A stretch of DNA of 64,000 nucleotides from Entophlyctis helioformis. Taxonomy: Eukaryota; Chytridiomycota; Chytridiomycetes; Chytridiales; Chytriomycetaceae. Both the position numbers and the translations under genes were made by a program. Each line of letters opens with the position of its first letter. Position 1 is the stretch's first letter. Below the pieces are notes generated by a model. That model was not told the origin of the DNA. It saw only the letters and a list, made by a program, of their open reading frames with translations, and did no database searches. The stretch lies in assembly GCA_025526915.1 (NCBI GenBank), contig JAHLKH010000016.1:1-64000 (forward strand). The letters run 5' to 3'. Below, in pieces: positions 4,167 to 62,794 of this stretch.

Positions 4167-4204
<38 letters not shown>

Positions 4205-7200
4205 CGATTCTGCGCCTCCTCTCTGTCACGGTCAAGCTGCCGCTGCCGCTCTGCTAGTTGCTGCTGTTCCTTCAACAGCCGCTGTTTCTCCGCCTCGAGT
4301 GTCTCCCGCTTAAGACGTTGGACGCGCTCCTGTTCCAAACGCTCATGCTTGGCGCGCACAGCCTTTTGGTGCTCAATTCGTGCCTTGATCGCGCGTTCCT
4401 CGTCTCTCTTGCGGGCAGTTTCCTGGCATGCGGGGCTCGCGCGGTACTCGAAGAATTCCTTGAGCTTCGTCTCGGCGTCGTGCAGGTTAGACCACGGCTT
4501 CGTTCGAGTGCGGATCCACTTGGACAAACTGGAGATGCTCTTGCTGAATGCGAACCGCTGGTCGAGCAGAATGATGGATCCCCAGTCATTACGATGCCGA
4601 ATACACCGTCCCAGTGCTTGGTTCAATGCGCGGAACGCTTGGATCTCATACCTGTGCACGGGCCAGTCACACCTCAATGAACAATCCGCAAATGCCCATT
4701 GCATGCAAGAAACCCACCACTCATTGCCATTCAGCAGACCTGCGCGGGATCCCCACGTGGAGTTATAGTCGCGCTTCTCTTTCACACGCGTCTCCATCAG
4801 GTTTGGATATGGCAGTCCGACACAGATAACTCCGCGAGCACGGTGGTCTGCAAAGTCGATACCCTCGCTCATTTTGCCACGATACACGCACATTAGGGCT
4901 GCACCGGTGCCCTGTCGACACGCTGCATCGTAGTCGGCCATGATCTGCTCAAGGCTGTTCTTTCCTGACGCCTTGACTGTCCGAGGCTCGGAAAACAGCC
5001 GCTTGGTCTGCTGGAAATCTTGTACAGACCAGTCTGCGACCATCGTTTGACGAGCTTGTCCATCAGTCTGCCCCAGGCGGCGGCATGATGTCAGCACAGC
5101 GCATGTCCAATGCATGGCAACAAAAGATATCAAAGCTTACGAGTAGCTGGGGAAGAACAGAAGCAGCCCCTCTGGTATGATCTTGGCAAGACGCACCAAG
5201 CAGAGACCAAGCTGATCTTGGAATTCAAACGTCTCGACGTGCTTGTATGTGGCAAGGAGAGGAAGGCCGTTTGCGCCAGTAGGGAGCGCGCCAATGCACA
5301 CTTGGTCGTCGTGGATGACGTGGGGAGCCTCAATGGTATAGGCAAACTGGGTTGCCAGTTCACTTGAGAACGAGTTCAGTGGGCTGAGCGTGCCGCTGAC
5401 GAGAACAACGGCCCGCGCCTGTGAGGCGATGTCGCGGAAGATGACGGCCGGATTCAGGCACCAGAACGAGATCGAATACAACCAGTCCGGACCAGCTGTG
5501 GATACAACGTCAATCAACCGTTACAAAACAGCTGGCCAGCACACATCCGGCCGCTCAAGTGCAACAAACCTATCGGCAAAGTTTGATGGAGGTTCTGCTT
5601 CTTGATGAGCACAAGGCGGTAGTCTGGTATGCCATTGGTTAGAACATCTGCCAACTAACAAGGCAGCCAATCAGCACTTGTGTCCAGCACCATCTTTCCA
5701 ATACCTTTGGCGTGGTCATATGTTTCAGACAGGATTAACTGCAGCACCATGATGAGACCTGCACCAACGAGCATTCATGCCAGTCAGGATCTTGAGCACA
5801 CAGCGCACTCGGACCGATTCACGCATATTGCACATGCTCACGTACCAGAGACAACGTGGCGTGATCGACGAGAAAGAGTAATGGGCGTGTTTTTGTCCTT
5901 CTTGTCGTTTTTCTCTCTGTTTCTGTAGACAGTCTCGATACTCTTGAGGGCCTGCGCATAAAGCGAGACACTTCCAGGCTGGATCCCCATCTGCGCGAGT
6001 GTGCTAACAATATCGGCACCAGCCCAGACACGAAGCGACCGGTCAAACTCGTGGATCGTGAAGCCGTGCCGATTGCCCTCGAGGAACGTGACGAAGATCT
6101 TGAGCATGAATGCAAGCGTCCTGTAGTGCTCTTTGAGCATCGTATGGATCTGCAGCTCTTCCTCGTAGTACTCCTCTTCTTCCGTCTCGTCAACAGGCCC
6201 ATCATCGCCTATCTTCTTGCTTGGCCGTTTCTTGGATCTGATCTTTGGATTGGCGAACCGCGACAATTCGCCGTGCGAATCAGTCAACGACGCTTCCGAA
6301 AGCTCGAGACTGCCTGCTTCCATGCAGGTGTTCTCGATGTTGTGTGCTGAAATGAAATGTCAGCGCGCCAACTGCATGTGAGTTTGCGTAACAGCGGCCT
6401 CCCGCGACTGGCGACATACCTTCGTCAATGACAAGGATGTTGCCTTTCAGTACAACTTCTGACGAAGCGCGAATCTCTGTCGCAGTCACGGACGGCATTA
6501 TTTGCATCAGTCAGTCGCTCAAACGCGAGTAGTACTTCAACAAAAGGCACATACGCGGGTCCAGAATATAGTTGTACGGAGCAAACACGACTTGTGCAGA
6601 AGCCGCCATGGAACGAGAAGCGTAGTAAGGACACCGATGTGCCTTCTTTCCAGCCGTGACTAGGTCCTGGCCACGGCAACATAGGCACCGCGTTTGTTCA
6701 TAGGGTAAGTGATATTGACCGATGAGTCGCAAGCATGGCGCGAACTGACCTCAATGTCCCACACAGCGTGCCTATCGCCACTGGGAATCAGGCTTTGTGA
6801 AGACATGTCGCGAGAACGCTGGTGAAAGCTGCACGAATTTGCCTCAAGTTCAGCAACGCAGGCCTCGTTCTTGTCTGTCTGCTTTCGAACACGCGTATTG
6901 ATGCAGTAGTGTTCACGACTGCCGAGAATGGCCATTCGCGGGCGATACGGCATCTTGTTGCGCAGCTCGTTAACCATTTGCTGGATCTGCTTTTGGGTTC
7001 GGCTACGATGAAGCAGGTCAGCAGGCTATCCGGAAGTCTACATATCGGGAATGCCGATGGATTGTGTTGGTGTGTGTGTACCTTGCGATATAGATCTTTG
7101 GAAGGACTGGGACGGAGTTGGCATGAGCAGCATGGCTGGCCCCGATGGAGTCGGAGGATGCTGCCATGCTTGACGATGCGGCTGGTTGATGCCGTGATGC

Positions 7201-9778: not shown

Positions 9779-12700
9779 ATGATCACGGCGCTGGACGCAG
9801 AAGCGGCTGAGCAGCGCGAGCTTCAGCAGCAGCAGCACCGGGAGCAGAGCAGGGGCGACAGAGCACGCAGCAGCACAGGCAGCCCGGCCAGCAGCCGCAG
9901 TGGCAGCCACAGTGGTAGTGGCAGCAGCGAGCGGCCGGCCGGCTCGTCGCAGCAGCAGCAGCAGCCGTCGCAGCCAGCACGCCCAGCCGTCCGACTGTCC
10001 AGCAGCCAGGCAGCGGCCGACGACGAGCCAGCCGTGCCGCGCCTGGTGATCTCCAAGATTGTGCAGCACAACTTCAAGTCGTACGCTGGCAAGGTCGAGA
10101 TTGGGCCCTTCCACAAGGTGCGTGTCTGACGTCTTGCTGCCCCGCTGCTTGTCTGCTCGTCTGGCCGGGAGCTCACACGCCCACTCGCACTGCCGACAGT
10201 CGTTCACGTCTGTTGTTGGCCCAAACGGCTCGGGCAAGTCCAATGTCATCGACTCGCTGCTCTTTGTGTTTGGCTTCAAGGCCAAGAAGATGCGCCAGGG
10301 CAAGCTGTCGGATCTCATCCACAACTCGAGCGCATTCCCGGATCTCCACTCGTGCTCGGTCGAAGTCCATTTCCAAGAGATCATCGACTTGGTAGGCTCT
10401 GCTTGCCCTCCAACGTACGCTCGATGGTCTCGCAGCTGACAGGCATTGCGTGCACGCTCGGCGCCGGCCGACAGCCAGGCCCTGATGCGTTCCAAGTTGT
10501 GCCCAACTCGCAGCTGACCGTGTCCCGCTCAGTCGAACGTTCGCACGGCGAAAAGAAGACCGAGAAGAGCTACTATTCCATCAACGGCCGCATGAGCAAC
10601 TACACTGAAGTCACGCAGCTGCTCAAGGGCAAGGGAATTGATTTGGACCACAAGCGTTTCCTCATCCTCCAGGTCAGCTAGCTCTCGACAACGTGACGCC
10701 CATGCCCTATCCCTCATTCATGCATGCGTTGTGCTGATACGCTGCTTTCAATTCGCTGCAAAGGGCGAGGTCGAGTCGATTGCGCTTATGAAGCCCAAGG
10801 CCCAGACCGAGCATGAAGACGGTCTCCTCGAGTACCTTGAAGACATTATCGGCACAACGCACTACAAGGAGGCGATTGAAGAGGCTGGCAAGCAGCTCGA
10901 AGAATGTAGCCAAGAACGCGAAGAGAAGCTGCAGCGACTCAAGATCATCCAGAACGAAAAGGCGGCGCTCGAAGAAAAGAAGCAGGAGGCTCTCGAGTAC
11001 ATCGAGACTGAAAACCAGATTGCGTTTTACAGAAACCAGCTGCTGCTGCGCGATATTACAGTCGGCGAGAAGTCTGTATTGGAAATGGAGGCTGAGCTGG
11101 TGAGATTATGTGTACATTCTGCCTGTTCATCTGCGCAATGTCCGGCACTGATGCATGAATGTGCAGGCGGCTGTCAAGAAGGCGCGTCAGGATGAAGACA
11201 AGGCATTTGAAGCGCAGACATCCGAGGTCGAGGCTTTGGAAAAGTCGTTCAAGCAGTGCCAAGCAGAATGCAAGGTACGCGTGCTGATGGCTGCCAGACG
11301 AGTGCAACGTCACTGATACTGGTTGCGATGGCTGCTTAGCAACTGGAAATGGAGGCCAAGGATGCCAAGGCGGACTTGCAAAAGTTTGACCGCGCAGAAA
11401 TCGAGATGAAGGAAAAGGAAAAGTACCAGAGGCTTAAACTCAAAAAGGTTGCAAAGGCACTTGAGCAGGTCAGTGAATCCTTGCCGGATAGGCTATGTCC
11501 AGGAGGCTGGCACGCTAACGTTGATGGCTTTGGCAGGACAAGCACAAGATGTCCGAGGACGAGACGTGGATCAGCAATTTTGCCGCTGACGTGCAGAAAG
11601 CAGAGACAGAGCTGCAAGGCCTCGAGTCGCGCCTGGAGGCGGAGCAAGCCGAGCTGGAAACCATTCGTCAGAGCCTGCAAGGTCTGTTAGCTTTGCTGCA
11701 GCAATGCTGCCAAAAGTGAGCAGAACACTCACTCGCATATGCATACAATGGCACTGCATCAATCAGGCAAAACGGAGGTGTTCCAGCAACAAATTGAGGA
11801 GCAGCAGCATCTCCTTGCTCCTTGGACCGAGAAGATCAATGCGACACGAACGCAGATCAACGTGGCGCGTGCAGAACTGGAGCTTCTTGCGAGCAAAATG
11901 AGCGAGGGCAAGCGTGTCTTTGAGGCAGCTCAGGCAGCCGTCTCTGGCTTGCAGCAGACGCTCGGCTCAAAGCAGAGCGAGGTGCGCGACATTCAGCAGC
12001 ATGCTGCCGTTGCCCAGGCGAATGCAGCAGCGAGCGAGGCCAAGTTGGAGCGTGCCCGTATGGACCACGATGCTGCCAAGGCTGCTCTTGATGCTGCGCG
12101 GCAAAAGTATGACGAGATGGGCCGTGCACTGCAGGCGCTGCAAACACGCGGCAAGATCCATTCCAGTCTGATGCACGAGACAAGCAGTGGACGGATTCCT
12201 GGAATTTGTGTAAGCCGATGCGCATTGCAAGCTGATTTGTCTGCGTCACCTCACAACGCAATGCCATGCCATTCTGCGTTTTACAGGGCCGTCTGGGAGA
12301 TTTGGGTATCATAGACGACAAGTACGATGTCGCAATCACAACGGCATGCGGCGCACTCGACTCGATTCTCGTCGAGACCGTCGAGACTGCCCAGCAGTGC
12401 ATCGATCACTTGCGCAAAAACAACCTCGGCAAAGCTACATTCATTTGTCTCAACAAACTGCGCTCGGAGAACATGTCGCGTATCCGCACACCAGAAAACG
12501 TGCCGCGTCTCTTTGACCTCGTCAAGCCTGCCGAGGACCGGTTTGCGCCTGCCTTTTACCAGGCTCTGACCGACACGCTGGTGGCTGAGAACATGGAGCA
12601 AGCCAACAGGATCGCGTATGGAAAGCAGCGATTCCGTGTTGTGACGCTCCAGGGCCAGCTGGTTGACAAATCGGGTACCATGACGGGCGGCGGATCCAGA

Positions 12701-14627
12701 CCACAGCGTGGAGGCATGTCGTCCAAGTTTGCACGTGCTGATGCAAAGGAGGTGTCGCCGGCCAAGTTGGAAGAGTGCAAACACGCCCGCGATGCTGCTG
12801 CAGACGCTGTGCACAACGCCTCGGTGCTCGTGGCCAAGCTTGAGAGACAGCTGGCAGATGACCAGCGCGCTGTACAGGAGCTCGAAGTTCTGCAGTCCAA
12901 GCTGGCTATTGATGTCGGATCGCTCAAGAGCCAGTACGCTGATGCGGAGGAGCATTTTGATTCATCAAAGTAGGTCATCGCTAGGCCGTCTGGCTTTGAT
13001 GATTGCAGATGCTGACGTCTCACAAACGTCGTTATTGCTGACTGATTTGCAGGAACATCCAAGGCCCAGATCCGGCCGATGCCAAGCGTGCAGACGAGCT
13101 TGAGAGGCTGCTAGAGAAACTCGAGCCTGTTCTTGGCAAGCAAGAGGCAGCCGCCGCCGCCATCCAAGCCAAGATTGCTGCGTTGCAGGAGAAGATTCTC
13201 GAAATCGGCGGTGTCAAGCTGCGCAGCCAGAATGCCAAGGTGGACGGCATCAAGGAACAGATCCACGACATGCACGCCAAGGTCACTCGCTTGCGCGCCG
13301 AGAAACGTACTCGCGAGGTATCGCTCGGCAAGATGGCCAAGAGCATCGCCAGACTCGAGGTCGAGACGGCCGAAATCCACGAGGCGCTGGAGCAACTGCA
13401 GACGGTGTTTGAAACCCAGTCGCAGGCGGCGTCCACGGTAAGGAAGCGAGTCAAGGAGGCACAGGCGTTCTTGGACAGCAAGCAGGAGGAGTTTGAGAAG
13501 ATGAAGGCCACGCGCGATGAGCAGTCTGCCGCGCTCAACTCGAGCCGCAGCAAGCAGCTGGAGCTCAAGACGCGGCAGGCTGAGCTTGGCCAGAAAGTTT
13601 CTGCGCGCCAGCGGCACATCAGAGCTGCCAAGGACAGTCTGGCCAAGCTGCAGCTGCAGCTGACGGGACTCGAGGGTCCCGACGACCTTACCCAGCTGCC
13701 CGTGTATACGCCGGAAGAGCTTGACGAGCTGGATTTCGAGCAAGGGGCCGCCGAGCTGTCTGCTCTCGAGTCGCACCTCAAAAAGCTGCGACCCAACATG
13801 GGCGTCATCAACGAGTTCCGGCAGAAGATGGAGCTGTACATGAGCCGCACGGCCGACCTCACGGCGATCACGGAGAAGCGCGACGAGATCAAGGAGCGCT
13901 TTGACGAGCTGCGCAAGAACAGGCTCCGGGAGTTCATGGCCGGGTTCACGGCCATCTCGCTCAAGCTCAAGGAGATGTACCAGCTCATCACCATGGGCGG
14001 CAATGCAGAGCTTGAACTCGTTGACAGTCTGGATCCGTTCTCTGAAGGCGTGCTGTTCTCTGTGATGCCGCCCAAGAAGAGCTGGAAGAACATTGCCAAT
14101 CTGTCTGGCGGCGAGAAGGTGAGATCTCTGCATGCCGGCAATGCGAAAGGCGACACGCCTCGGGTCGGGTGCACCACTGACACAGCGTGTTCGTGTGTTG
14201 TCAGACGCTCAGCTCGCTCGCGCTGGTGTTTGCGCTGCACCATTTCAAGCCAACGCCGCTGTACGTCATGGACGAGATTGACGCGGCACTCGACTACCGC
14301 AACGTGTCCATTGTGGCCAACTACATCAAGCAGCGCACCAAGAACGCGCAGTTTGTGATTATCAGTCTGCGCAACAACATGTTTGAGCTTGCGGATCGGC
14401 TTGTAGGCGTGTACAAGGTGAGCCTGTTTGCTCTTGTGTGTGTCTGTGTGTGTCTGTGTGTCTATGGCTGACTAGCTGACTGGCTGGCTGGCTGGCGGCG
14501 ACAGACCAACGATGCGTCCAAGAGCGTGACGATCGACCCGCGCGGCATCCAGCTGCATGCTGTGTCTGCCACACAAGCACCAACAGCCCGCCCCCCGCCC
14601 CGCGCTGTGCCGCTGTCGCAGGCATAG
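9779..14627 (+). CDS. SMC4: Condensin subunit SMC4
   Basis: SMC4 pairs with SMC2 as the ATPase core of condensin in mitotic chromosome compaction. Twelve exons join in frame to 1,324 aa: 9779-10117, 10200-10391, 10475-10672, 10764-11099, 11167-11274, 11340-11468, 11537-11681, 11767-12209, 12287-12969, 13053-14118, 14205-14417 and 14505-14627. The first 95 residues are Ser/Gln-rich. Walker A is GPNGSGKSN; the SMC4-typical RFLILQGEVE segment follows. Long coiled coils surround a hinge beginning GRLGDLGIIDDKYDVAIT. The C-terminal head has the signature LSGGEK and Walker B YVMDEIDAALD. All motifs are intact. Its product acts in the nucleus with the other chromosome-biology genes nearby only by proximity; no operon is implied. 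Confidence 0.97.
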
Positions 14628-22990: not shown

Positions 22991-23244
22991 AACGTTCCTT
23001 CTGGCGAGGGGTGGGCAATAGGGCGAGGGAATGCCGGCAAACCGCGGGCAAATGGCCCGACATTCAAACAATTACCAAGCGTTTTGGAATTGGATTCGAC
23101 CCGAGAAGCGTCGAACGCAAGCAAGCACATCACACGAGGGAAGGTTCGAGTCAGCAACGAGCATGCGACGACAGGTGGGCGAGGCACACCAACCAGAGGC
23201 TTACCTTTCATTATTATTGAAATAATGATGTGATAAGTGACCCG
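22991..23244 (-). other. 3' flank of the Fanzor gene with potential hairpins
   Basis: This spacer separates NDUFA1 from the convergent Fanzor stop codon. Read on the minus strand it starts with a hairpin of nine pairs (one G-U) around a four-base loop at about 23209-23231, then a CGGGC/GCCCG stem near 23053-23067. Another six-pair stem, ATCGGG/CCCGAT, overlaps the last codons of the Fanzor frame near 23252-23270. In TnpB and Fanzor loci the guide RNA is made from the 3' end of the nuclease gene and its flank, so this is the place to look for one. No RNA family could be assigned from sequence alone. Confidence 0.35.
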
Positions 23245-26200
23245 TTAGGTCGATCGGGAGGTGCCCCGATTCAAAGTGTTGGTGGTTGTGCTGGAAGTCA
23301 GAGCACGTGGAGTGGCACTTGACTTGCTGGCACGCTGTCTGCGTGTTGGACGCTGCTGGTCGACAGGCGGATCCGGTGCTGGAGGCAGCTGGACGACAGG
23401 CGGATCCGGTGCTGGACGCCGCTTGATGGCACGTCTTGGGCGCTGCTGGTCGACCGTCGGATCTGGTTCTAGACGTCGCTTGATGGCGTGTCTAGAACGC
23501 TGCTGGACGACAGGCGGATCGACTGGCGTGTGCGTCAAGTAGAGCGGCCGGTGTCCAAAGAGCAGATGCTCCAGTGCAACCATCCCGATGTTGGTGGCTC
23601 CAAGCACGTCTCGGTGGTAGACGGTCTCGCAGTCTGTGCACTCGTAGCGTCGCAGGTTGGTGCGGTTCTCGTATGGGATCCGCTGCTTGCACTGCGGGCA
23701 CATCTGGCTGGTCAGGTTCTCGTTGCAGCGGTAGATCTGTGTGTGTGTGCATGATCGTGTGTCAGTTGGTGCACAGATGGATGGACAGCATGGCATCAGA
23801 CGCACATAGGCATATCCAGACGACCGCAGATGCCTGATGAGAAACTTCTCAAACACAGCGTGCCGGCCACCTTGGCCTGTAAAGTCGATGCCAAATGCCC
23901 AGACAACGGGAATGTCCTTCTCTGGGTTGCTGACAGGGAGGCCTTGAGATGCACAAGATGCGCGATATCTAGTGGTCGATCCTGCCAGCTTCATGATGCC
24001 CTCAAGAGCCTGTCCGCGATCAGACATGCGCTTGCAGCGCATGGCAAACCGCTTGTCCTTGACCTTCTGTGGAATGCCATGCCATGCCATGCCATCCAGT
24101 GCAATCAGCAGGCGATCAAGCAGTATGGCGGTCATGGCAATGGGCATCCAGAAACAGAGAAAACGTACCCGTGCATTCAGGAATGGCGTGCAGTACGCAT
24201 GGCAGCGCAGATCCCAAAAGGCTCTCTCGCCAGGCTTGATGTCTGGATCGGCATGCTTTGCTGTCTTGAATGCAATGGCCTCATGGACGTCGGTTGCCTT
24301 GGCATATCGATTGTTGAGCCTGGCACAAGAGGCAGGCACTGTGAGTTGATCTGGTCAAGAGTGCGCGTGGCAGAGTCATTGCATGCATACCACCGCTGAA
24401 GGTCACGCTCAGCATGAAATACGCCAGAGGAGAGCACGTAGTTGGCCTCGAGCGTGTATGTCTCCTCCTTGACATTGACAAGCATGCTGGACGCGCCAAA
24501 CAGGTACCTTTCGCCCCAATCAAAGCTGACAACGCGAACAAAGTCCTTGTCGGCGAGCAGCTTGTTGGCATCAGCAGCATCGGGCAGTCGCTGCGAGGCG
24601 TAAAAGTTGCACTTGACCTGTCATGCCATGGCATGAGTGAGGAATGTGCAATGCATGTGCACCAATGCGCGAGGTTGGCATGCAAGTGGCTTACAGGATT
24701 GGGCGTGTATGGCTTGGTGGCTGATGGGTCGCCTGGATTGGCGGCTGTGGATGGCATGTCAGTCGGTGTGGACAACAAGTGTGCGCCTGGATTGGCACAG
24801 CAACTCACATTCGCCATCCAAGCCATCATCCAAGTCATCGTCATCCAAGTCATCATCCAAGTCATCGTCAGAATCAGAGTCATCAGCATCCTCAACATGA
24901 CTGAACTGCTCGTCTGAAGTCGCCGCATTGGGACCTGCAGAGCAAGGCAGTGGTCAGAATCAATGCGTGCACCACAGCATCCAAGCATGGCACATACTGC
25001 GAGGTGACTTTGGACGGTTTGTGCGAAACTCCAGAACAGTTTGAAAGACACTCTTCCCGTCGGTCTTGATGCTGCCAAATCTGACCGACTTGGTTGGTAG
25101 CACTTGAGGAAGAGCATCAACCTTGGCCTTGATCAAGTCCGCCGACTGCTTGTCGTCCAGTTGAAGATTGTCAGCCTTGGCTTCTTGTGTCACATCAGGA
25201 GTTGCTCTGGCCTCTTCCACGGTGTCGGCTGGGTCAATCTGCAACTTGGCCTGTGCTGGCGTTTGATAGCGCCGTGTATCGGAGGCGAGTCCAGGGAGGA
25301 GGAGATCCATGACGCACAGCTCGTCACTTGAACTGAACGCCTTGTCGATGGCTTTGTTGCGCAACGCAAGCTCCGAGTCTTTCCAGTTAAGCTCTTTGAG
25401 AAGCCAGCCAGGCTCTTTGAGACGAGTGGATTGTTAGCATCAAATCATAAAAAGATGGCATAGACAGGCAGTGTGACTGACTTATGGCAGCAAGAAGCTC
25501 CAGTCTCAATGCTCGCAAGACAGGATCTTGTGACTTGCTGGTGCGATCCCTTTTCAGCCCCATAACCGCCCAGAAGAGGACGGTCTCGGTGATAAGAACA
25601 AAGGGATCACGACTTGCCGCTTGAGGACAGAGCTTGATGCTCTCTCTTCCAGCGAGATCGCGCAGCTGCTTGAAGCGTCCAACAGTCGACAGCGACATGT
25701 TGCGTATGATGGCCACAAGCTTGTGCAATGCTGGCGGGGTCACCACAGCGCTCTTTTTCCCTGCGGCGTCCTTGGCGGCCGGCTTCTTGCCGCGTGCCTT
25801 CTTCGCGCCGCTCTTGTCAGTGGCCGACGATGAGCCTGACTGGCCTCTCTTGTTGCTTGGCGCAGGAAGGGTGGTGTCAAGATCGGCCGACGATGGGTTT
25901 GGCGCTGCACTCTTGCGCCTTGCTCTCTTGGGTTTCGTTGGGCTTGACGCGGCGTCCTCAGTGCTTGACGCCGCACTCGTTTGTCTCCCTCTCTTGGCGG
26001 CCGATGGTCTTGGCGCGGTGTCCTTGGCAGCAGCAGCCTTGGCGGCATCGGCTTCCTTGAACAGGGATTGGACCAACTCTTTCGCCTGCTCACGAGACAT
26101 TCCGGGAGCAAGCTTGATGGCTGCACCAACCGCCAGGTCGAATTGACTTCCAATGTAGTGCCGCGCGAGTATGGTGCACACCTCTCTGGCGAGGTTGTTG

Positions 26201-27223
26201 AAGATGTCGCTAGTTGCGCTCCCGCAGAGAGTGTTGTCCAGGCGGTATGGTAGAGCTGCCTGATACGTGACGTCCTCCTGCATGTCCGTCTGGATTGTGT
26301 CGGCCTGCTGCGCACCATTCTTGTCCGCGTACATCTTGTCCGCACTGGCCTGCACCATCCCGCGCGTCCATGCGCGGTGGATCATCAACTGCATGACAGT
26401 GACGACCCATGCATTGATCGTGTCCATGTCATGCTGCGGCTTGGCCATCTCCTTGCCGGTGAAAATGTTTGAAAGGTGGCGAAAGATGCAGGCCACAGTT
26501 GTCTCGCCACCCGAGGTGCTGTTGATGAGTGCCGTGAACAGCTGGTTGGATGTCGGCACTCTTGGTGCTGCTGCTGAAGGCTGATCAGGCTGCTGAGGCT
26601 CGTCAGGTTGCTCGTGATGTCAGGCTGCTCGTGAATGTCGGCATCCTCGGCATCCTCGGCATCCTCGGCGTCCTCGGCGTCCTCGTGCTGCTCTGCGTCC
26701 TTTGACTCCTCGGCTGTCTTGGGCTTCTCGACCTTCTCAAACATAATGCGCTCGAGTCTTGTACCCGTCGCCAGTTGCACCGGATGCCCATACCGAGGCT
26801 TCTTACTCTTGTGATTGTACAAACTGAGCCGTACATGAGGCGGGCAGTGATGTCCTTTCCGAGGGTGAATCGACCCGAGAAGAGCTCCGCCTTGGTCACG
26901 CCGCCGAGGCCGTCGATGCTGGCATGGTCGCCGAGGTTGTCGATGCCCTTGAAGTCCAGGTCCAAGAAACAATACCGCGTCGTCTTGCCATCGATCCACT
27001 TGTACACGTGGTACTTGGGCGGGAGCGGGGAATCCGGGACAAGATCGAGCATCTCTTCGACGATGGCGCCAATCACGACGAACCCAGCATGCCGAAGACC
27101 GACGATGAATGAGTACACCTTTGCGAATGTGTCCTCGATGATCAGACGCCGCGTCCATATCTTTGGCGTCTTCCTGGCTTCAATGCCATAGACCTTGGCG
27201 CTTCCTGGATTGCCCGACAACAT
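23245..27223 (-). CDS. Fanzor-type RuvC nuclease (eukaryotic TnpB homologue)
   Basis: Fanzors are RNA-guided DNA endonucleases descended from transposon TnpB. The C-terminal exons show a RuvC-I-like VSFDWGERYLFG (Asp codon 24519-24521) and a candidate RuvC-II segment VWAFGIDFTGQGG followed by VFEKFL (Glu codon 23848-23850). The TnpB-type ribbon then follows: C-P-Q-C (codons 23698-23700, 23689-23691), C-T-D-C (23638-23640, 23629-23631), then YHRDVLGATNIG with the RuvC-III Asp at 23608-23610. Upstream exons encode a Lys-rich linker with likely nuclear-localisation patches (25750-26050) and an acidic Asp-rich stretch (24820-24900). At least seven short introns are inferred. A one-base gap near 26825 and another near 26575 (or one 250-bp intron covering both) are needed to keep the frame. 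The start is unsure: ATG at 27223, or further upstream, since 27251-27670 also looks coding. All expected catalytic residues are present. Confidence 0.8.
26638..26684. repeat. 9-bp tandem repeat in the Fanzor gene
   Basis: Five copies of a gcatcctcg-type unit encode Glu-Asp-Ala repeats on the minus strand. This lies within the stretch whose exon or intron status is unresolved. Confidence 0.85.
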
Positions 27224-27250
27224 TTTCTGCGCACCACGCCAACCTCTGAG

Positions 27251-27676
27251 TCAGTCCATGCAAAGCCATGCATGCAGGCAGAATGGCGATCCTAAATCGT
27301 ACCTTAAGCGCCACTCTCGCGCCACGATGATCAGGTCATCCACGGCAGGCTGATCTGGCGCATCCACAGCAGGTTGATTGGTTGCTTGCTCTGCCGTTTG
27401 TTGATCATTGCTGCCGATGGCCGCAGAGAGCGACATGAGTGGCCCTGTAACAGTGCGACCCAGCTTTCGAATCAGCAGATGTAGTGCCCATCGTGAGCGA
27501 AGCACGATTCTGCCAAAACACGCATGTCAGCAAGAGTACTCAAGGCAAATGGCACAGCATACATCACTTACCCATGTCTTGTGCCAGCAGGCAAACTACT
27601 GCGGGCAAACCGGCTCGACTTTCCCTTGTTGGCCTTGATGGCCTTCAGTGTCGCGGCCTTTGCAGCTTGCAATGTG
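27251..27676 (-). other. Coding-like stretch between the XPG-like and Fanzor genes
   Basis: Two blocks read as protein on the minus strand: a Lys/Ala-rich helix (LQAAKAATLKAIKANKGK) ending in a donor near 27570, and LRSRWALHLLIRKLGRTV through VAREWRLR, ending in a donor at about 27302. The first block would join the upstream XPG-like gene if two bases were added near 27678. The second would join the Fanzor frame at 27223 if the AAAA run there had one more A. It may therefore be the true N-terminus of Fanzor or a linker joining both proteins. Confidence 0.4.
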
Positions 27677-30428
27677 CTATCTCTTCATGAGCGCGGCCTC
27701 CTGCTTCTTTGTGAATTGAAGTCGTGGCTGTGGAGGTTGGATGCAGCATGAGCAATGCATTCCGAGTGCACACAATGCATACGCAAGCGCCAATGGTACA
27801 TCAGAACTAACCGTCGTCTTGGTGTCTAAATGTCGATTGAGAGAAAAGACCACGGGCTGTGCTTCTTCCACCTGAGCGTCAACAGATGGCTGTGGTCGCT
27901 TACGCCGCTTGTGCCGCTTTCTAGATGGAGCCGCCTGCCAATTGGAGAAATGAGTGATCGCACCAAGTCATTGCATGCGCACACAGACAGTCAAGATGAA
28001 GACGCACCGAGGGTTGATTGATGATCAAAAATAGCATCTCGGTGGCCTCTTTCAGCTGCTTGACAAGCGTCACTGATTGGTCATCCATGATGCGTCCCAG
28101 GGCCTTGAGCTTTTTTCTGGCCTTTTTGCGGTTCTTGGCCGAGAATTCATGGAGATCAGCTTGGTTGATGACCTTGCCTTGCTGCTTGGGCTTTTGCTTG
28201 ACTTGCTGCATGCCTGGCTGCGGTTTTGGTTCTGGAATAGCACATTCGGCAAAAGGCTGCTGTCAGTACATGGCGTCGAGTCATTCCAATGCAAGCCAAA
28301 CGTACGCGGTGTTGACAGATTCTGGAAGGATGAACCTTTAGGATCCAGAATCTTGCCCAACTGATTCGTCATCCTCCGAGCGGCGCCCTGTCCAACGGGC
28401 AGTGGATTGAGTTAGACACTTCAAGGTGAGAAATGCACATGCATCCAAGTCATGCCATAACGTACATGTGTGTCCCAAACAAACCGATCAAGTCGACCAA
28501 GCTCTGCGCGCACTACCGCTACTTGAGACTTCTCGCGGGCAATCTCTAAAAGTTGCAAACTTGCCGTCCTGCTGATCGTCGCCAGAATGTCACGGCCTGC
28601 GACTCCATCGGGGTTGCGAGCGAGGTAACCTGGCACGTGCCTGACAATGCAGTCGAATGCAATCGGACATCGCTTGACATTGAGAAAGGTAGCATCCATT
28701 TGCCTTGTCTTGACAATCTTCTTGATGTGCCAGTCGATATCCTTCTGCGTCAGGTGCACAATGTTGGGATCGGGGTTGCCTTGCTGCGACTTGGGGTGGA
28801 TCAGGAGGCACCAGCATGTAGCTGGCAGCTGCATCGTGATCCAACAATGACATCAAAGACAGGAATGATGAATCAGTCATGCGAGAACACCAAGAGATCA
28901 CATGCGTGCATGCATACCTTGCTTGACCCGTGGCAGTCGCGTCAACAGCCGTGCTGTTGTCATTGCCATGTTGCGATGGATGGTCAGTATGGCGCTATGC
29001 ATGCAAACGCGTCCATGCCACCATCCCATAGCCAGTCACGCAATAACTTGCCTATGCACTGGCACGTTGCCAGATGGGCTGCTGGAGCCAGTTGGAGGTT
29101 TGAACGCATTGGCCAATGCCCCCGACTCGTCGTGGTACACGAAAACGGAGAAGGCGTTAAGGAACGACTTTGCAAGGTCCTCGCCTCCGATCGTCCACAT
29201 CTCCTCGGCGTAAGCATTTCGAACGTATTTCTTGAAATTCTTTGCAATCCTTGGTTTGTGCAGTAGGATGCAGAACTCCTCCGGCGAGATATTCCGCTTG
29301 CTTGCCGCCTCCTCGACGTACTTGTTGGTGGTGTTGACGGCCGTGCGATGGCCTTCCAGGCAATGTGAATGGCAACGTGAGTTAGTCGGCATTGTAGCAT
29401 GGATGGCAATACAAGCATCAAGACAGGAATCGCACGCACCACGGCCGTAACAATCATGATAGTCGGTCTTGCCAAACGAAGCCACAAACTGGCAAACATC
29501 AGGGAAGACATAGACGTCAAGGGCCGACGCAACGGACGCGATACCTGGATGGTTAAAAGACCGCAGGCTTTTGGCCTCCCCCTTCCGCTTAGACGTCATG
29601 ATGACCGGGCAGCGTCCAGCGCAGTGCGCAATGAGATCCGAGTCGTTACAAATGACGGCCATGGGAATGCCGCTGATGCGAGACAAAGACTGTTAGACGT
29701 CAATCATAGCAGACAGATGTCATGGCAATCTATACCTTGGCTCGCTTGCATGGAGGGCTGCGCGGCGGGCAATACAGACGTCGGCCTCATGATTACACCA
29801 ACAGACCTTGTGTCGAGACCCAGAGCCAAGGATCTCCGCAATCGCCTCTTTGATGAGCCTCTTGTCATCGTGTGTGATGGTGAACGAAAGTCGCAGTGCA
29901 CGCTTCTCTTTCCTGGATCGTCAACCAAATGTTAGAATCGCCACATGGAGGCACAAAGAAGTGTACGTACCGCTTCAAGTGCCAAGATCCCTTGCCTATG
30001 CACCGTCTGTAAAGGCAGCGCAGAATAGTGCCCACTGAACGCAGGACTTGCAGGGCACGGCCCTTGTGAGCGGACTTGATACCGGTATCGCCGTACTTGC
30101 CGTCAACGTGAAAGATATAGGCGTGCTCAGCACCGTACTCGGCAATGAACGATGTGATGACGGGCTTGAGGATCGGTATCCACCCAGCTGTGGATACTGG
30201 GTAATCGGGCCCTGCTGCCCCCGAGAAGTGCGGAAAGAACACGCTCATCACATCGACATGAAGAATGCCAGGGTTGCTTGGTGTGGCCGTGTTGGCATCG
30301 CTTGGATCTCGTGACGGCCATGCGCTGTCAAGCACAAGCCTCACGAACGTGGACACAAGCATACCGATCAAGAGTACACAGCTGCCGCCATGCTTCCCCA
30401 ACCACGAAACAAGCATAGGGAGCCCCAT
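27677..30428 (-). CDS. FEN1/XPG-like structure-specific nuclease, 3' part uncertain
   Basis: The ATG at 30428 gives the family's characteristic MGL start. Exons 30428-29971, 29912-29736, 29672-29440 and from about 29352 join in frame. Seven acidic residues align with the FEN1 metal ligands: D59 (HVDV), D109 (FHVDG), E195 and D197 (HEADVCIA), D222 and D224 (CNDSD) and D282 (FGKTDY). Their spacing is close to FEN1 D34, D86, E158/160, D179/181 and D233. A helix-hairpin-like segment follows. FEN1/XPG enzymes cut flap and bubble DNA. A GC-AG intron (donor at 29051) probably ends this part. Beyond it lies a frame starting at ATG 28834 with a Lys-rich tail ending at a stop at 27677-27679. That frame may be the C-terminus of this protein, a separate small gene, or the start of the Fanzor protein. 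Confidence 0.65.
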
Positions 30429-32173
30429 GTCGTGCGATTGTGTCTGCGATCGTGCGGTCTCGCCTGCGTGCCCGTGCCTGCGCGTCCGTGTGTGACCGTT
30501 TGTTTGTTTGTTTGTGCGATTGTGCGATTGTGCGTGCTCGTGCGATCGTGCCTGCGAGCGATTGTGTGTGCGGTCGTGGCCGTGCCTGTGTGCCTACGAT
30601 CTTGCGCTCGTGCGATCCTGTGATCCTGCGATCCTGCGAGCAATCCTGCGTGTCCGTGCAGTCTTGCCTGCGATCGTGCCTGCGATCCTGCGTGCGATCC
30701 TGCGTGCAATCCTGCAATCCTGCGATCCTGCGATCGTGCCTGCGATCCTGCCTGCGATCCTGCCTGCGATCCTGCGATCCTGCGTGACCGTGCGTGTCCG
30801 TGCGTGTCCGTGCGTGTCCGTGCGTGTCCGTGTGTGTCCGTGCGTGTCCGTGCGTGTCCGTGCGTGTCCGTGCGTGTCCGTGCGTGTCCGTGCCTGCGTG
30901 TGATCGTGCCCCGTGCGTGCCCGTGCGTCGAGTGATTGGGTGGTGCTTGTCTCTTACCTTCAGTGACCTGAGCAAAACTCTGCAAACGAATACTCGCCTT
31001 TTATTGCTTGACCAAACAGCCAACCAATCAGAAGTCTATGAAAAGGTCAACAATGCCGCCTCTTCCACCAGTACAGCCATGTTTGTTGTGGATCTCGTGG
31101 CATGGATCTGTCACGAGGCGTGTGTTCTCGTCCACGACCGTGCACATGCCGCTGACTGGCTGGCTGGCTCGCATTGACTTTTGTTCAGGTTGACGCCTTT
31201 CAACTTCATTCTTCTTGGTTGGATTGGCATGCCACTCTGAGCAGCGATGCTGTTGATGCAGATCGTCTCCACATTGAGGCTGGCACGCAGCCCGTCTTGG
31301 AGGTGGCGGCTTGATGGCCACTCGGTGGCACACCAAGGGCACTCCTGCCTGTGGCAGTCTCAACTGGCACCTGTTTGCATTGAGCCGGCACTCTTCTGCG
31401 TGCTGCAGAGACAACCATGCCACAGCAGACCTGGACGCCTTGGTTGAATGGGCAACCAAAGACTTGCTTGATGCTCAACGGGGTTTGGATGCTGGCATGG
31501 CAGCCACAGCACTGGTTGCCCATCCAGCCTTGTTCATAGGGTCCATGCCGCAGTTGGAATCACCAAGTGCACATGGAATTGCTAGATCTCATCCATGTGA
31601 ATACCTCCAACCTGATGCCCAGCCCTCCTTTGTGCTCTGAGCAGTACTGAGATGCGCCGTATCGCTATCTGGCTCCTTGGAACAGAGATTGCCAACCAAC
31701 ACCATGACAACCCTCCAATCTTTGACCGAGTTGTCATCCCAGATCTCACAAATGTGTCACTCTTTCTTGTGATGATGGTGCAAGGCGAGTTTCTCCTTGG
31801 GCACAGTGTCTTCATTGCCGACTTTGGATGCTGTTGACTTCAGTCGCCAGCAGGTCTGAGACGACTTGTTCTTTGCAACCTGCAGTCGATCAGCCCTTTG
31901 TTGTTGACCGAGACTGTGCATGCTGCTCGTCATTGCATTCGCGGGCATGCTGACAAGCCAGGTGGGCGTGGCTGTTGGCTGTGGATGACGGGGTGCGACG
32001 GCATCGTGCCTTGAATGCAAGACTTGCTGATTATCTGCGCTGCTGGCTGTTGCAAAGACACTCGTCGCTGTGACCTTGCTGTGTACACAAAGGCAGCCAG
32101 GACAGAGGTTGACATGAGTGAGCAGGATTGCCGCAGGCATTCTGTGTGTATCGCCTCGACAGTTCTCAAAGTC
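30429..32173. other. Gene-poor region with tandem repeats and degenerate fragments
   Basis: The first 500 bp upstream of the XPG-like start are short tandem repeats. From 31000 to 32170 no frame is convincingly coding. Short minus-strand stretches at 31750-31930 and 31030-31350 have protein-like composition (Lys/Gln-rich, and Cys/His-rich without a recognisable zinc-finger spacing), interrupted by stops. They may be decayed exons of a mobile element or of a gene whose splicing could not be resolved. Confidence 0.4.
30590..30890. repeat. Tandem repeats of about 10 bp
   Basis: From 30781 to 30890 there are eleven near-perfect copies of a tgcgtgtccg unit. From about 30590 to 30780 there is a less regular array built on tgcgatcctgcc-type units. 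All six frames stay open for long stretches because of the repeat period, which explains the long Arg/Thr/His or Cys/Val-rich translations here. Confidence 0.9.
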
Positions 32174-32701
32174 AGACTAATCCAAGCGCGAGGCCTTACA
32201 GCAGCTCGAGGAGACGCGGCAGCTCAACAATACGCCGAGTGATCCATCCATGACCTTGTTGGTGAGCTCGTCTGCCTCTTGTGCGATGGCTGTCAACAGT
32301 TGCGACTCTGTTGACACTGTGTGCCTTGACAAGCTCGACGACGGCAAGTACCTTGCGGACGAGCATGGACAGCCAACCGTTGCTGCAGCTGCCACGCCAA
32401 CAGCCAGCCGCCAAAGAGCGTCAAGCAAGCGGAAGAGAGCAGCAGCAGCTGATGCCAGTGAGTCTGTGCTGGCTGTGACGTCGCCGTTCGGACATTGCAG
32501 CAGGCAGCCCCAGCAGCACGCACAAGAGCGCCGACTGGACGCAGAGGGCCAACAGCTGCAACAGGCAGTCGCACGACAGTTCTTCGTGACACTACCAACA
32601 CGCAACCAACTGCTGCCCCTGGGACAGGCTCGGCAGTCCACAAGCCAGCGTCAAAGCGACGACGACTTGAGAAGGCATCGGCTGCAGACCGCTCAGAGTG
32701 A
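32174..32701 (+). CDS. Hypothetical short nuclear protein (tentative)
   Basis: A charged helix (REALQQLEETRQLNNTPSDP, about 32187-32250) may splice at the donor near 32260. A second block (KLDDGKYLADEHGQPTV to about 32458) and a third (about 32505-32701) ending in a bipartite-like basic patch (SKRKR ... SKRRRLEK) follow. Donor and acceptor consensus exist between the blocks. No start codon or domain is recognised, so this may be part of a longer gene or not a gene at all. It ends 186 bp before the Atg22-like start. Confidence 0.25.
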
Positions 32702-32887
32702 CTGGGGAATTCCGGACAAGAATATGAAATTGGATTCAAAAAGATTGGAAATTGGATGCCAAATTGAACAAAATTCGAGGCAAACCAGCCGACCAATCAG
32801 GTGCCGGCACAGGGTGCTCTATGGGGAAACACAGAATTGCCTGCCCCTCTGGAGAAGCGGCCACTTCATCTTGGCCAAATTCCAAAA

Positions 32888-35296
32888 ATGTCCGCCGCCA
32901 CCGAGCCGGCCAAGGCTGTTGAACCCGAGACCCATGGCGAGATCCTTGACCAGCCAGAGACCACCAGGGACGAGCTGCGCGGCTTCTGGCTGTACAACTC
33001 GGCGCTGTCTGCAACCGGCGGCATCGGCCGTCTGCTGTCGCTGCTCCTGCTCAACGACCTCGCCCGCGGCGCCGGCATCTACGAGTTCACCAAGTGAGTG
33101 CGGCAAGCCTCATTGACGTCCTCCACCGAGCTGTGCACCAGGCCGTGCAAGCCGCTGTGCACCGCTGTGCTGGCTGCTCGCTGGCTGGCTGCTCTCCGCT
33201 GTCGCTAGGTGGTGCACTGTCTGCAAACCCAGACAGACCCCAGATGCCAGCAGATATGCCCGCCCTTGTCTGTCGGCACTCGGTCCGTCGCAGCAACGTC
33301 CATCGCCAAACGCCGCCTCCGCCATGGACAGTGTCGGCATCGCGCGGATAATCCTCACGAATGCTGACTCTCGATCACCTGTCCACTTGCAGCATCTCGT
33401 GCACAGAGCCGTACGTGCCGCCCGCCCCGAGAAACGGGACTGCGACAAACGGCACCATCAAGGCATCCATCACGACAGGCAACGCAGCGTCGCCCGTCGA
33501 GCCAAACTGCGTGCTGCCCATCGCCGGATCGTATCTCAACGTCGTGTCGTACGTCTCGTTCGTCTCGACCCTTGCCGTCATCGTCCAGGTCCTCCTGTTC
33601 ATCTCCATCTCGTCGTTTGCCGACTACGGCGAGTACCGCCGTCTGCTGCTTATCATCACCGGTGTCGTTGGCTCGCTGTCGTGCATGCTGCTTCCGCTGG
33701 CATACAACCCCTGTAAGTCCTGTCGATCGCGTCCACTCGTGTGATCGCCATACAATGCCATTCTGTCGCATCTGACGCCACTCTTGGCGCGGCATCCAAC
33801 AGCACTCTACTGGCTCGCCGGTCTTCTCGTGATCCTGCTGTCCATCTTCCAGTCCGTCTCGTTTGTCTTTATCGATGCGTACTTTCCGATCCTCGTCAGA
33901 AACGACCCCGTCGTCAAGTACCACCACCAGCATCGCCGCGACACCATCAAGCGTCGGTCCATGCCAGTCACTGCCGAGCCTGCTGAGCACCCGGACACCG
34001 ACGCCGCCCAGTCGGTATTGCCGCGCGACAGCACCGTGTCGAGCGCAACCGCCGCCGATCTGATCTCGGCTGGAGAGGGCACTCACCGCCAGCTGTCGAT
34101 CGACGGTTACATTGTCGAGAAGACGGCCATCAAGACTCAGTCATACGACGATCGTGCCAACTGGGTGCAAAAGTACAACAACATTATTGGCTTCTCGACC
34201 AACTTCATGTCGCTCGCTCTTGGTGCGATTGCCATTGTGTTCCTTGGCGGCGGCTATCTCGCGCTCGAGGTCATCATTGCCGCTTCAGGCGTCTACTGGC
34301 TCGCCCTGGGCATCGTCGCGTGGCGCAAACTCAAGGCGCGTCCGGGTCCTCCTATTCCCAAGGGCGTCAACTACATTGTGTTCTCCTGGCTCTCGGGTAG
34401 GTTGCCGCACTCTGCATCTCAATGGCACCGCGTCTGCTGGCGCACACAGCGCACTCACTCACCCCCACACTTGAACGGCAGTCTTCAAGTCGATCAAAAA
34501 GGCCAGACAGCTGCCCAACACGTTCATTTACCTGCTCGCCTTCTTCTTCTACGGCGACGGCATGAACACGCTTGGTTTCGCCGTTGTGCTCTTCACCCGC
34601 GACAAGCTCAAAATGTCCAACTTTGAGGCACTCGTCGTCGCGGGTCTGTTCCCCGTCTTTGCCATCGTCGGCTCGTTCGCGCTCGCGTCGATGCAGTCGT
34701 ACTTCCGCATTGCCACCAAGAACATGCTCATTGCATGCGTGTGCGGATTCATTTTCGTGCCCGTCTATGCGCTCATTGGCGCTTTCAACACCACGTTTGG
34801 TCTCATCTACCCGGCAGAGGCGTTCGTCGTAACGCTCTGGGGCGGCTTCTTCTTTGGTGGCGCCGTTTCATTTGGCAAGGTGCTGTTCTCGGAGCTCATT
34901 CCGCCCGGCATGGAGGGCGAGTTCTTTGGTCTGGCCGCCATTGCCGACCGTGGATCGTCGTGGATCGGTGCGCTCATGGTCGGAGTCATTTCCAACACCT
35001 GGGACCTGCGCTTCGGTCTCGTCTCTCTCGTGCTGCTGTTCCTGATCTCGATCCCGCTGCTGTTCATGATTGACGTGCAGCAAGGATTCCGCGATGCGCG
35101 TCTCATGGCCGTAGGAGCACACGAGGACATTATCGTGCTTGACGACAACCACGAGTTTGATGCCGAAGAGTCGGGCTCAGACCTTGGCCCAGGTGCCCGC
35201 CGCTCCACTGCTTGTCCTCCAGAGCATCAGATGCCGGAACGTTGGCTGGATCGAATGCCGGCAACACGACATGGGGGTCGCTCAAGCGGTCAGTGA
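32888..35296 (+). CDS. Atg22-like major facilitator transporter
   Basis: Exons 32888-33093, 33393-33712, 33803-34396 and from 34482 join in frame. The protein shows about twelve hydrophobic segments and family features such as YNSALSATGGIGRLLSLLLL near the N-terminus, SFVFIDAYFPILVR, and YLLAFFFYGDGMNTLGF, which is typical of Atg22. Yeast Atg22 is a vacuolar amino-acid effluxer working after autophagy. A 75-residue hydrophilic loop with Ser/Thr/Asp lies between two halves of the domain. The last hydrophobic segment ends near 35075. Continuing in the same frame the stop is at 35294-35296; a one-base shift near 35195 would instead give a Ser/Thr/Ala-rich tail to a stop at 35512-35514, which reads more like a natural disordered C-terminus. 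Confidence 0.8.
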
Positions 35297-62729: not shown

Positions 62730-62794
62730 TGCGTCGTATTTGCCTTGTGCACGCCAATGAATTGTTACATTTTCCGCACTTTCAACAAGCGGCC

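What the first reader, a model, noticed from the sequence alone, without database searches (positions are those of the whole stretch)
23245..30428. FEN1/XPG-like nuclease gene directly upstream of a Fanzor nuclease
The sequence shows two co-oriented genes, one with a full set of FEN1-type acidic residues in correct spacing, the other with RuvC motifs and the Cys4 ribbon of TnpB/Fanzor. Fanzors are established as RNA-guided nucleases carried by transposons. I know of no described Fanzor locus with a structure-specific flap nuclease as partner. A flap nuclease could process the R-loop or cut ends, or help integration or repair; that role is inference.
Basis: partly seen in the sequence, partly recalled or inferred. 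Interest (0 to 1): 0.92.

Follow-up and report, generated by a model that had tools for sequence, protein, structure and literature searches.

The report
Transposon with FEN-like–Fanzor fusion nuclease
In this chytrid-fungus genome an abundant 9.8-kb jumping element carries a Fanzor (the eukaryotic relative of CRISPR nucleases) that seems to be read in one frame with a FEN1-like DNA nuclease, which would be a new kind of two-nuclease machine for spreading DNA.

Summary
It lies in an abundant ~9.8-kb element (window 23006-32849, minus strand) with ~14-bp inverted repeats and 9-bp target duplications. From capped hit lists, 153 XPG-like and 162 Fanzor loci were found genome-wide. Of 101 XPG-like loci with a listed Fanzor within 12 kb, 98 are co-oriented, all 98 with the XPG-like part upstream.

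Main revision: it looks like one gene, not two. Conserved introns join XPG-like and Fanzor exons in one frame; two copies, themselves broken elsewhere, read without a stop from the end of exon 4 into the first Fanzor exon. The window copy is frameshifted.

The XPG-like part keeps seven acidic residues in 9 of 11 copies, with dN/dS 0.14-0.46 over 13 pairs. But no profile significantly matched FEN1, and structure prediction could not be run. The Fanzor part is secure (TNB domain, published motif). No MULE transposase match was found. The only relative found elsewhere was one hypothetical Entophlyctis helioformis protein.

Mechanism (inferred): RNA-guided cutting by the Fanzor part and flap or R-loop trimming by the FEN-like part promote copying of the element.

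The parts
23006..32849 (-). Whole mobile element (window copy), 9.84 kb, sense on the minus strand
   Evidence: blastn boundaries against copies on C108, C112, C264, end alignments; 23 of 38 paired ends genome-wide are 9-11 kb apart, the doubled C108 end counted twice
32836..32849 (-). 5' terminal inverted repeat GAGGGGCAGGCAAT (12 of 14 match to the 3' repeat)
23006..23019 (-). 3' terminal inverted repeat; the 27-nt terminus has 82 matches genome-wide (up to 3 mismatches) against 0 for the reversed control
31287..32825 (-). Conserved 5' region of 1.5 kb, 93-96% identical between the window copy and C103, whose XPG-like part is far more divergent; no clear coding periodicity, no significant Pfam match in four long frames scanned
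30522..30928 (.). Minisatellite tract just upstream of the XPG-like start codon
29971..30428 (-). XPG/FEN-like exon 1 (MGLPMLVSWL; first acidic residue in HVDVM, second in HVDGK)
29736..29912 (-). XPG/FEN-like exon 2 (HEADV: two acidic residues)
29440..29672 (-). XPG/FEN-like exon 3 (NDSDL and KTDYH: three acidic residues)
29052..29352 (-). XPG/FEN-like exon 4 (ends at a conserved GC-AG type splice donor AG|GCAAG)
28918..28953 (-). Exon 5 (36 nt)
28466..28828 (-). Exon 6 (conserved NPDPNIVHLTQKD...; included in the XPG-part dN/dS of 0.14-0.46)
27303..28387 (-). Exons 7-11: linker joining the XPG-like part to the Fanzor part in one frame (introns inside)
   Evidence: length differences to C103 in exons 8 and 9 are 12 and 9 nt
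25482..27226 (-). First Fanzor exon (N-terminal half; KMLSGNPGSAKVYGIEARK onward)
24169..25414 (-). Middle Fanzor exons including the RuvC-I aspartate (VVSFDWGERYL)
23245..24066 (-). Fanzor last two exons: NENLTSQMCPQC...CTDC...HRD (alternative glutamate, TNB zinc ribbon, last RuvC aspartate)
   Evidence: Pfam PF07282
23006..23244 (-). Conserved non-coding 3' region between the Fanzor stop and the 3' terminus: candidate guide-RNA scaffold; hairpin TGCCGGC-loop-GCCGGCA (window 23032-23050, one mismatch in the window copy)

Best explanation
A high-copy TIR transposon family of a chytrid fungus encodes one large spliced protein (~1,900 aa in the model): an XPG/FEN-like nuclease module at the N-terminus, a fast-evolving linker, and a Fanzor1-type RNA-guided nuclease at the C-terminus. 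The RNA made from the conserved 3' region, reading through the 3' terminus into the flank, would serve as guide. The Fanzor part would cut matching sites that lack the element (empty or sister sites), so that repair copies the element in, as proposed for TnpB. The tethered FEN-like part would trim the 5' flaps or R-loop strands left by staggered RuvC cutting or during integration and repair. Shown here: element anatomy, 9-bp duplications in some copies, order and orientation, conservation of both active-site motifs, purifying selection on both parts, one continuous frame across the junction in two copies. Inferred: that one polypeptide is made, that the N-terminal module has a FEN fold and flap activity, that the 3' region is a guide RNA, and the transposition role. 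No MULE-type transposase match was found in the genome, so the enzyme that made the 9-bp duplications is unknown.
For: Order and orientation: 98 of 98 among co-oriented neighbours. Ends: 82 matches to the 3' terminus and 80 to a 5' motif against 0 for reversed controls; 23 of 38 end pairs 9-11 kb apart. Exact 9-bp TSD in 4 of 15 copies examined, 7 of 9 bases at the terminus in 3 more. Seven acidic residues invariant in the 5 aligned sequences, complete in 9 of 11 copies; 0 of 200,000 shuffles of P0001 fit a FEN-like order and spacing pattern (written after seeing the motifs) that 4 of 5 members and P. furiosus FEN1 fit. dN/dS 0.14-0.46 over 13 XPG pairs and 0.32-0.52 over 4 Fanzor pairs; pairs share copies and are not independent. 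From the end of exon 4 through exons 5-11, 0 stops in C108 and C264, frame continuing into the first Fanzor exon; exons 1-4 (window lengths) plus 5-11 (C108 lengths) sum to 2361 nt, exactly 787 codons. TNB domain and Fanzor motif. 3' region conserved in the 10 of 27 sequences where the terminus was found, fold z = -2.1 in the one copy tested. Precedents: the S. punctatus Fanzor RNA lies between stop codon and 3' repeat (PMC10432273, passages); Fanzor1 elements with 9-bp TSDs and no transposase in fungi (PMC3627910, passages).
Against: No full-length open copy was seen in the five copies read whole; each has frameshifts, and C264, C108 and C112 carry insertions of about 270, 190 and 230 bp in exon 1, exon 4 and the Fanzor part, so the two read-through copies are broken upstream. 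Linker exons 7-11 evolve almost freely (dN/dS 0.83-0.88; exon 8 about 1.5). Exon by exon, some short Fanzor comparisons exceed 1 (up to 2.98 for one exon, in which XPG exons 3 and 4 were read in a wrong frame and are superseded). The only annotated homologue, P0001 (349 aa), stops where I read a GC-AG donor. hhalign against FEN1 gave probabilities of 0.1 and 0.2%. Pfam XPG_I_2 is only E=0.038, no better than hits of frames I take as non-coding (E=0.034, 0.036), and an alpha-kinase model scores better though below its cut-off (E=0.0029-0.014). 52 of 153 XPG-like and 60 of 162 Fanzor loci had no listed partner; 28 of 82 3' termini had no listed Fanzor within 4 kb. 8 of 15 copies show no TSD at the terminus, the window copy among them. 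No compensatory changes in the 3' fold. No transcript, protein or activity data.
Confidence: 0.55

Rival explanations
1. Two separate genes in one element: a stand-alone FEN-like nuclease (ending near the stop after exon 4 or in exons 6-8) and a Fanzor with its own start codon, carried together as in the first reader's view.
For: The annotated homologue ends at RQVLA followed by its stop, and other copies have RQVIA at that place; linker exons evolve almost freely; the XPG half diverges as a unit, with a break near window 28040.
Against: In C144 and C121 the stop codon after exon 4 is absent, and AG|GCAAG is kept in 12 of 12 copies aligned. In C108 and C264 exon 6 is open only in the frame that continues exon 4 via exon 5; in C112 and C103 the ATG at the exon 6 acceptor is not in that frame (by eye). 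Phases of exons 4-11 fit one frame into the Fanzor.
Confidence: 0.25
2. A non-autonomous MULE-like or otherwise trans-mobilised element in which both nucleases are passengers; mobility comes from an unseen DDE transposase, and the nucleases only help retention or are decaying.
For: 9-bp TSDs as in MuDR-type Fanzor1 elements of Mucoromycota that lack a transposase (PMC3627910, passages); no transposase domain in the frames of the element scanned with Pfam; short derivatives of 2.3-2.4 kb keep both ends.
Against: No MULE match in the genome, in a six-frame search that does not allow for introns; other transposase families were not sought. Both coding parts are under purifying selection.
Confidence: 0.35
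3. The N-terminal module is not an XPG/FEN nuclease but another acidic-site protein whose motifs only resemble FEN1.
For: No significant profile or sequence match to FEN1/XPG; the best weak Pfam hit is an alpha-kinase model, below cut-off.
Against: Seven invariant acids in FEN order with E-x-D and D-x-D spacing; two of the four families listed for A1 at E up to 1 are FEN-superfamily models, though at background strength; the best local hhalign segments fall on the corresponding motifs.
Confidence: 0.2
4. Chance adjacency of an XPG-like gene and a Fanzor.
For: None found.
Against: 98 of 98 same order among co-oriented neighbours.
Confidence: 0.01

Closest known systems
Fanzor1 elements of the chytrid Spizellomyces punctatus (Spu-1 / SpuFz1)
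   Same: Fanzor1-type protein in a TIR element of a chytrid, many copies, no transposase found between the repeats, RNA region between stop codon and 3' repeat (PMC10432273, PMC3627910; passages)
   Different: SPu-1 is ~2.1 kb with one 633-aa ORF and putative TA duplications; here 9.8 kb, 9-bp duplications, a multi-exon gene and a FEN-like module in frame
MuDR-type Fanzor1 elements ROr-4, PBl-3, MCi-4 of Mucoromycota
   Same: Fanzor1 with 9-bp TSDs and no MuDR transposase (PMC3627910, passage)
   Different: Their repeats resemble confirmed MuDR elements; here repeats are ~14 bp and no MULE match was found in the genome; no FEN-like module is mentioned for them in the passages read
PpFz1 with the RuvC-insertion (FRI) domain, Parasitella parasitica
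   Same: A Fanzor1 with an added domain (PMC11423790, passages)
   Different: FRI is a ~100-aa insertion that binds cyclophilin; here an N-terminal nuclease-like module
PGv-1, a Mariner-type Fanzor1 element with a GIY-YIG nuclease gene
   Same: Fanzor and a second nuclease in one transposon (PMC3627910, passages)
   Different: There the second nuclease is of another family, is a separate protein, and a Mariner-like transposase is present
Academ transposons with an XPG nuclease (recalled, not confirmed by any search here)
   Same: An XPG nuclease carried by a eukaryotic DNA transposon
   Different: Academ carries its own transposase; I recall no Fanzor in it; the passage read names only a RecQ helicase for Academ, and the listings showed no such paper

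Membership tests
Fanzor (type 1) | D-x(125,275)-[TS][TS]-xx-C4 zinc finger-x(5,50)-RD (PMC3627910) | tested here: met
   gap 188, TSQMC, C4, RD; the ten motif residues are present in the 5 of 5 copies where the Fanzor was read exon by exon
Fanzor (type 1) | TNB / OrfB zinc-ribbon domain | tested here: met
   PF07282 E=9.7e-11, above cut-off; NCBIfam guided_TnpB E=1.9e-6, below its cut-off
Fanzor (type 1) | Carried by a eukaryotic transposable element | tested here: met
   ends, TSDs in part of the copies, copy number
Fanzor (type 1) | Detectable sequence similarity to solved Fanzors | tested here: not met
   no PDB hit for the joined model but a spurious one at E=0.92; none of 3629 word-sharing candidates of similar length reached E<=0.001 for the C-terminal part. 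A detection limit rather than a defining trait
Fanzor (type 1) | Guide RNA from the 3' end and RNA-guided DNA cleavage | not testable with these tools
   Only conservation and folding of the 3' region
XPG/FEN1 nucleases | Seven metal-binding acidic residues in conserved order and spacing | tested here: met
   the assignment of each residue to FEN1 is by eye
XPG/FEN1 nucleases | Significant match to XPG/FEN profiles | tested here: not met
   Pfam best XPG-type E=0.038, at background level; none; hhalign probability 0.1 and 0.2%
XPG/FEN1 nucleases | FEN fold (SAM-like core, helical arch, H3TH) | not tested
   AlphaFold queue full at every attempt (25 attempts, first, last)
XPG/FEN1 nucleases | Flap or bubble cleavage | not testable with these tools
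   No biochemistry available
MuDR/MULE transposons | Target-site duplication of about 9 bp | tested here: met
   9 bp exact in 4 of 15, 7 of 9 at the terminus in 3 of 15, none at the terminus in 8 of 15
MuDR/MULE transposons | MULE transposase in the element or in the genome | tested here: not met
   0 matches to PF10551 in a six-frame search without introns; the same search rang in 3 of 14 control genomes, all three prokaryotes

The most novel reading that the evidence does not exclude
A single ~1,900-aa protein joins a FEN-like structure-specific nuclease to an RNA-guided Fanzor nuclease and is, with its guide RNA, the whole spreading machinery of the element: the Fanzor part makes a guided cut, the FEN-like part processes the resulting strand ends so that the element is copied or inserted with a 9-bp duplication, without any DDE transposase. 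Its N-terminal nuclease modules are exchanged between copies like cassettes.
Probability: 0.2. Interest if true: 0.93.

Novelty: new variant of a known kind. Interest (0 to 1): 0.72.

Why it matters
Why eukaryotic transposons of many kinds keep Fanzors is an open question. A family in which a Fanzor has been joined to a strand-processing nuclease, in about a hundred paired copies of one 30-Mb genome, gives a direct handle: the partner activity would say what happens after the guided cut. It would also be a natural model for coupling an RNA-guided cutter to end processing, which genome editors try to do by design.

Tried and rejected
Chance adjacency: rejected by genome-wide order. A MULE partner: no match; other transposase families were not sought genome-wide. 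A third gene in the conserved 5' region: some long frames on either strand, but no clear codon periodicity and unshared one-base indels, and no significant Pfam match in four frames, so I do not claim one. Stop codon after exon 4 as the true end of the XPG-like gene: absent in C144 and C121. TAM consensus: looked at by eye in the few flanks with a TSD, nothing clear; the only bias is AG as first two bases of the 3' flank in 9 of 19. Viral relatives: 22 and 41 pattern stretches, none confirmed. Literature, listings only: 'Fanzor' with 'XPG' 0 papers; three of TnpB/Fanzor/FEN1/flap endonuclease one review on gene integration; the broader searches (141, 525, 415 and 83 papers, 20, 20, 15 and 12 listed) showed no title on such a fusion. 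The library holds open-licence papers only.

Limits: 150 rows were listed and used in each (153, 156, 159 and 151 matches), so all counts are lower bounds. Species: the best pieces of P0001 match this genome at 88-99% in separate places, so it is Entophlyctis helioformis or very near it; not proven.


Full report
What is in the window. The Fanzor part has a Pfam Cas12f1-like_TNB domain at E=9.7e-11 and fits the published Fanzor/TnpB motif (motif from PMC3627910, passages read). The upstream part is not recognised by Pfam above cut-off, but five divergent sequences of the family share seven invariant acidic residues in the FEN1 order: D in VD, D in HVDG, E-x-D in HEAD, D-x-D in DSD, and a last D.

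It is a repeat family. Six-frame searches of the window's own genome (29.57 Mb, 482 contigs) with four coding stretches gave 153, 156, 159 and 151 matches, of which 150 each were listed. Clustered, the listed hits make 153 XPG-like and 162 Fanzor loci; 101 XPG-like loci have a listed Fanzor locus within 12 kb, 98 of the 101 on the same strand, and in 98 of those 98 the XPG-like part is upstream; 3 are on the opposite strand; 52 XPG-like and 60 Fanzor loci have no listed partner. Some of the latter lie at contig ends and the lists are capped, so true lone copies cannot be counted.

Element anatomy. Comparison with copies on contigs C108, C112 and C264 shows shared sequence from 23003-23007 to 32825-32849 and no match beyond in the stretches compared. 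The ends are GAGGGGTGGGCAAT... and ...ATTGCCTGCCCCTC, matching 12 of 14 as inverted repeats in the window copy. The 27-nt 3' terminus has 82 matches with up to 3 mismatches, the reversed control 0 (C108 counts twice); a 36-nt 5' motif has 80, control 0. Of 38 end pairs in correct orientation within 30 kb, 23 are 9-11 kb apart; 54 of 82 3' termini have a listed Fanzor within 4 kb inside, and 47 of 80 5' motifs a listed XPG-like locus within 4.5 kb. Of 15 copies with both flanks in hand, 4 have an exact 9-bp duplication at the termini (C108, C264, C121, C178), 3 more match at 7 of 9 (C13, C15, C331), and 8 show none at the terminus, the window copy included. The genome has no six-frame match to the MULE transposase family; other transposase families were not searched.

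One gene, not two. Exon 4 of the XPG-like part ends at AG|GCAAG, kept in 12 of 12 copies aligned; the stop codon just behind it is missing in C144 and C121, so it is not needed as the gene's end. Exons 5 to 11 have conserved splice sites in the five full copies and lead into the exon that begins KMLSGNPGSAKVYGIEARK of the Fanzor in the window copy. In C108 and C264 the frame from the last 92 nt of exon 4 through exons 5-11 has no stop and runs on into the first Fanzor exon, where each copy then has its own frameshift; C112 and C103 have the same exon phases with a frameshift in exon 6 and, in C103, another in exon 11. C264 and C108 are not intact either: insertions of about 270 and 190 bp break their exons 1 and 4. 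In the window copy exons 1-4 read in one frame. Exons 1-4 (window) and 5-11 (C108) sum to 2361 nt, exactly 787 codons. Length differences to C103 in linker exons 8 and 9 are 12 and 9 nt. The window copy has at least five one-base frameshifts against its sisters. One junction (intron 7) had two possible donors: my first choice broke the frame; the canonical GTACGT, used, keeps it.

Selection. Over 13 pairs of copies the XPG-like exons give dN/dS of 0.14-0.46, down to 54% amino-acid identity; over 4 pairs the Fanzor gives 0.32-0.52; the pairs share copies. All seven acids are present in 9 of 11 copies; C39 and C398 each differ at one. Exon by exon the picture is noisier: one short Fanzor exon gives 1.15-2.98 in four distant comparisons (XPG exons 3 and 4 of that call were in a wrong frame). 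Linker exons 7-11 give 0.83-0.88, so the linker is free to vary.

Modular exchange. Between the window copy and C103, the 5' 1.5 kb is 93-96% identical, the XPG-like half 71-84%, then the Fanzor half and 3' end 88-98%. Synonymous change shows the same step (XPG dS 0.57, Fanzor 0.23). XPG-like modules of different ages therefore sit on nearly the same element, most simply by recombination between copies.

Candidate guide RNA. About 240 nt between the Fanzor stop and the 3' terminus are conserved in 10 copies; the terminus was found in 10 of the 27 sequences scanned, several of which do not reach it. A hairpin TGCCGGC-GGTTT-GCCGGCA stands near the terminus, perfect or nearly so in the 10. The fold of one copy has z = -2.1, with 6 of 200 shuffles as stable, and the consensus fold has no compensatory changes. 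In S. punctatus the Fanzor RNA lies in the same place (PMC10432273, passages). This is a resemblance, not a test.

FEN kinship. Against: PDB searches by sequence and profile gave only unrelated weak hits; hhalign with one and with four archaeal FEN1 sequences gave probabilities of 0.1 and 0.2%; the best weak Pfam hit is an alpha-kinase model below its cut-off, and XPG_I_2 at E=0.038 is no better than hits of frames that I take as non-coding. For: the motif order; 0 of 200,000 shuffles of P0001 and 0 of 98 long frames of the window match a pattern that four of five members and P. furiosus FEN1 match (the pattern was written after seeing the motifs, so this is descriptive); the best local hhalign segments lie on the corresponding motifs. 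AlphaFold could not be run (25 attempts).

Distribution. In a library of 5.8 billion proteins the XPG-like part found one relative, hypothetical protein BC831DRAFT_438485 of Entophlyctis helioformis (about 8000 candidates scored); the Fanzor C-terminal part none (3629 candidates). Viral contigs: none. The organism is Entophlyctis helioformis or close to it; P0001 matches this genome only in pieces.

How it most likely works. Inference from known systems: TnpB cuts sites lacking the element so that repair copies it in, and the same is suggested for Fanzor (discussion of PMC10432273, passages). RuvC cutting is staggered and leaves single-stranded ends and an R-loop (general knowledge). A tethered FEN-like nuclease is fit to remove 5' flaps or R-loop strands. 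I give fusion about 0.75, FEN fold about 0.75, Fanzor identity about 0.95, and this mechanism about 0.45 given the others.

Verdict. A new variant of a known kind: a Fanzor1 transposon with a FEN-like nuclease in frame. Known Fanzor add-ons in the passages read are the FRI insertion of PpFz1 (PMC11423790) and a separate GIY-YIG nuclease gene in PGv-1 (PMC3627910). No paper in the held library names both Fanzor and XPG.

Noticed in passing
window 28040-30440 against 23006-28000: Sharp step in divergence between the window copy and C103: the XPG-like half is 71-84% identical while the 5' end and the Fanzor half are 88-98% identical, suggesting cassette-like exchange of the nuclease module.
   Followed up: partly
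genome contigs C89 (55242-57567) and C40 (2651-5051): Short 2.3-2.4 kb elements with both ends kept; C89 still holds the Fanzor C-terminus. Possible counterparts of the 'ghost' elements of S. punctatus.
   Followed up: no
3' flanks of 19 insertions: The flank starts with AG in 9 of 19 cases, a possible target preference.
   Followed up: no
L072 (C108), 3' terminus: The terminal 19 bp are present twice in tandem, inside an exact 9-bp duplication.
   Followed up: no
window 32826-32849: Two variants of the last ~24 bp of the 5' end exist: one in the window copy and C108, another in the other copies whose 5' end was read (C112 lacks the last bases).
   Followed up: no
window 31287-32825: A 1.5-kb 5' region more conserved than the XPG-like part, without clear coding periodicity; function unknown.
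   Followed up: partly
window 3343-5136 (-), 12236-12970 (+), 33745-35293 (+), 62723-63604 (+): Ordinary host genes around the element: a Helicase_C_2 helicase, an SMC hinge protein, an ATG22-like transporter, a BAG-domain protein.
   Followed up: no
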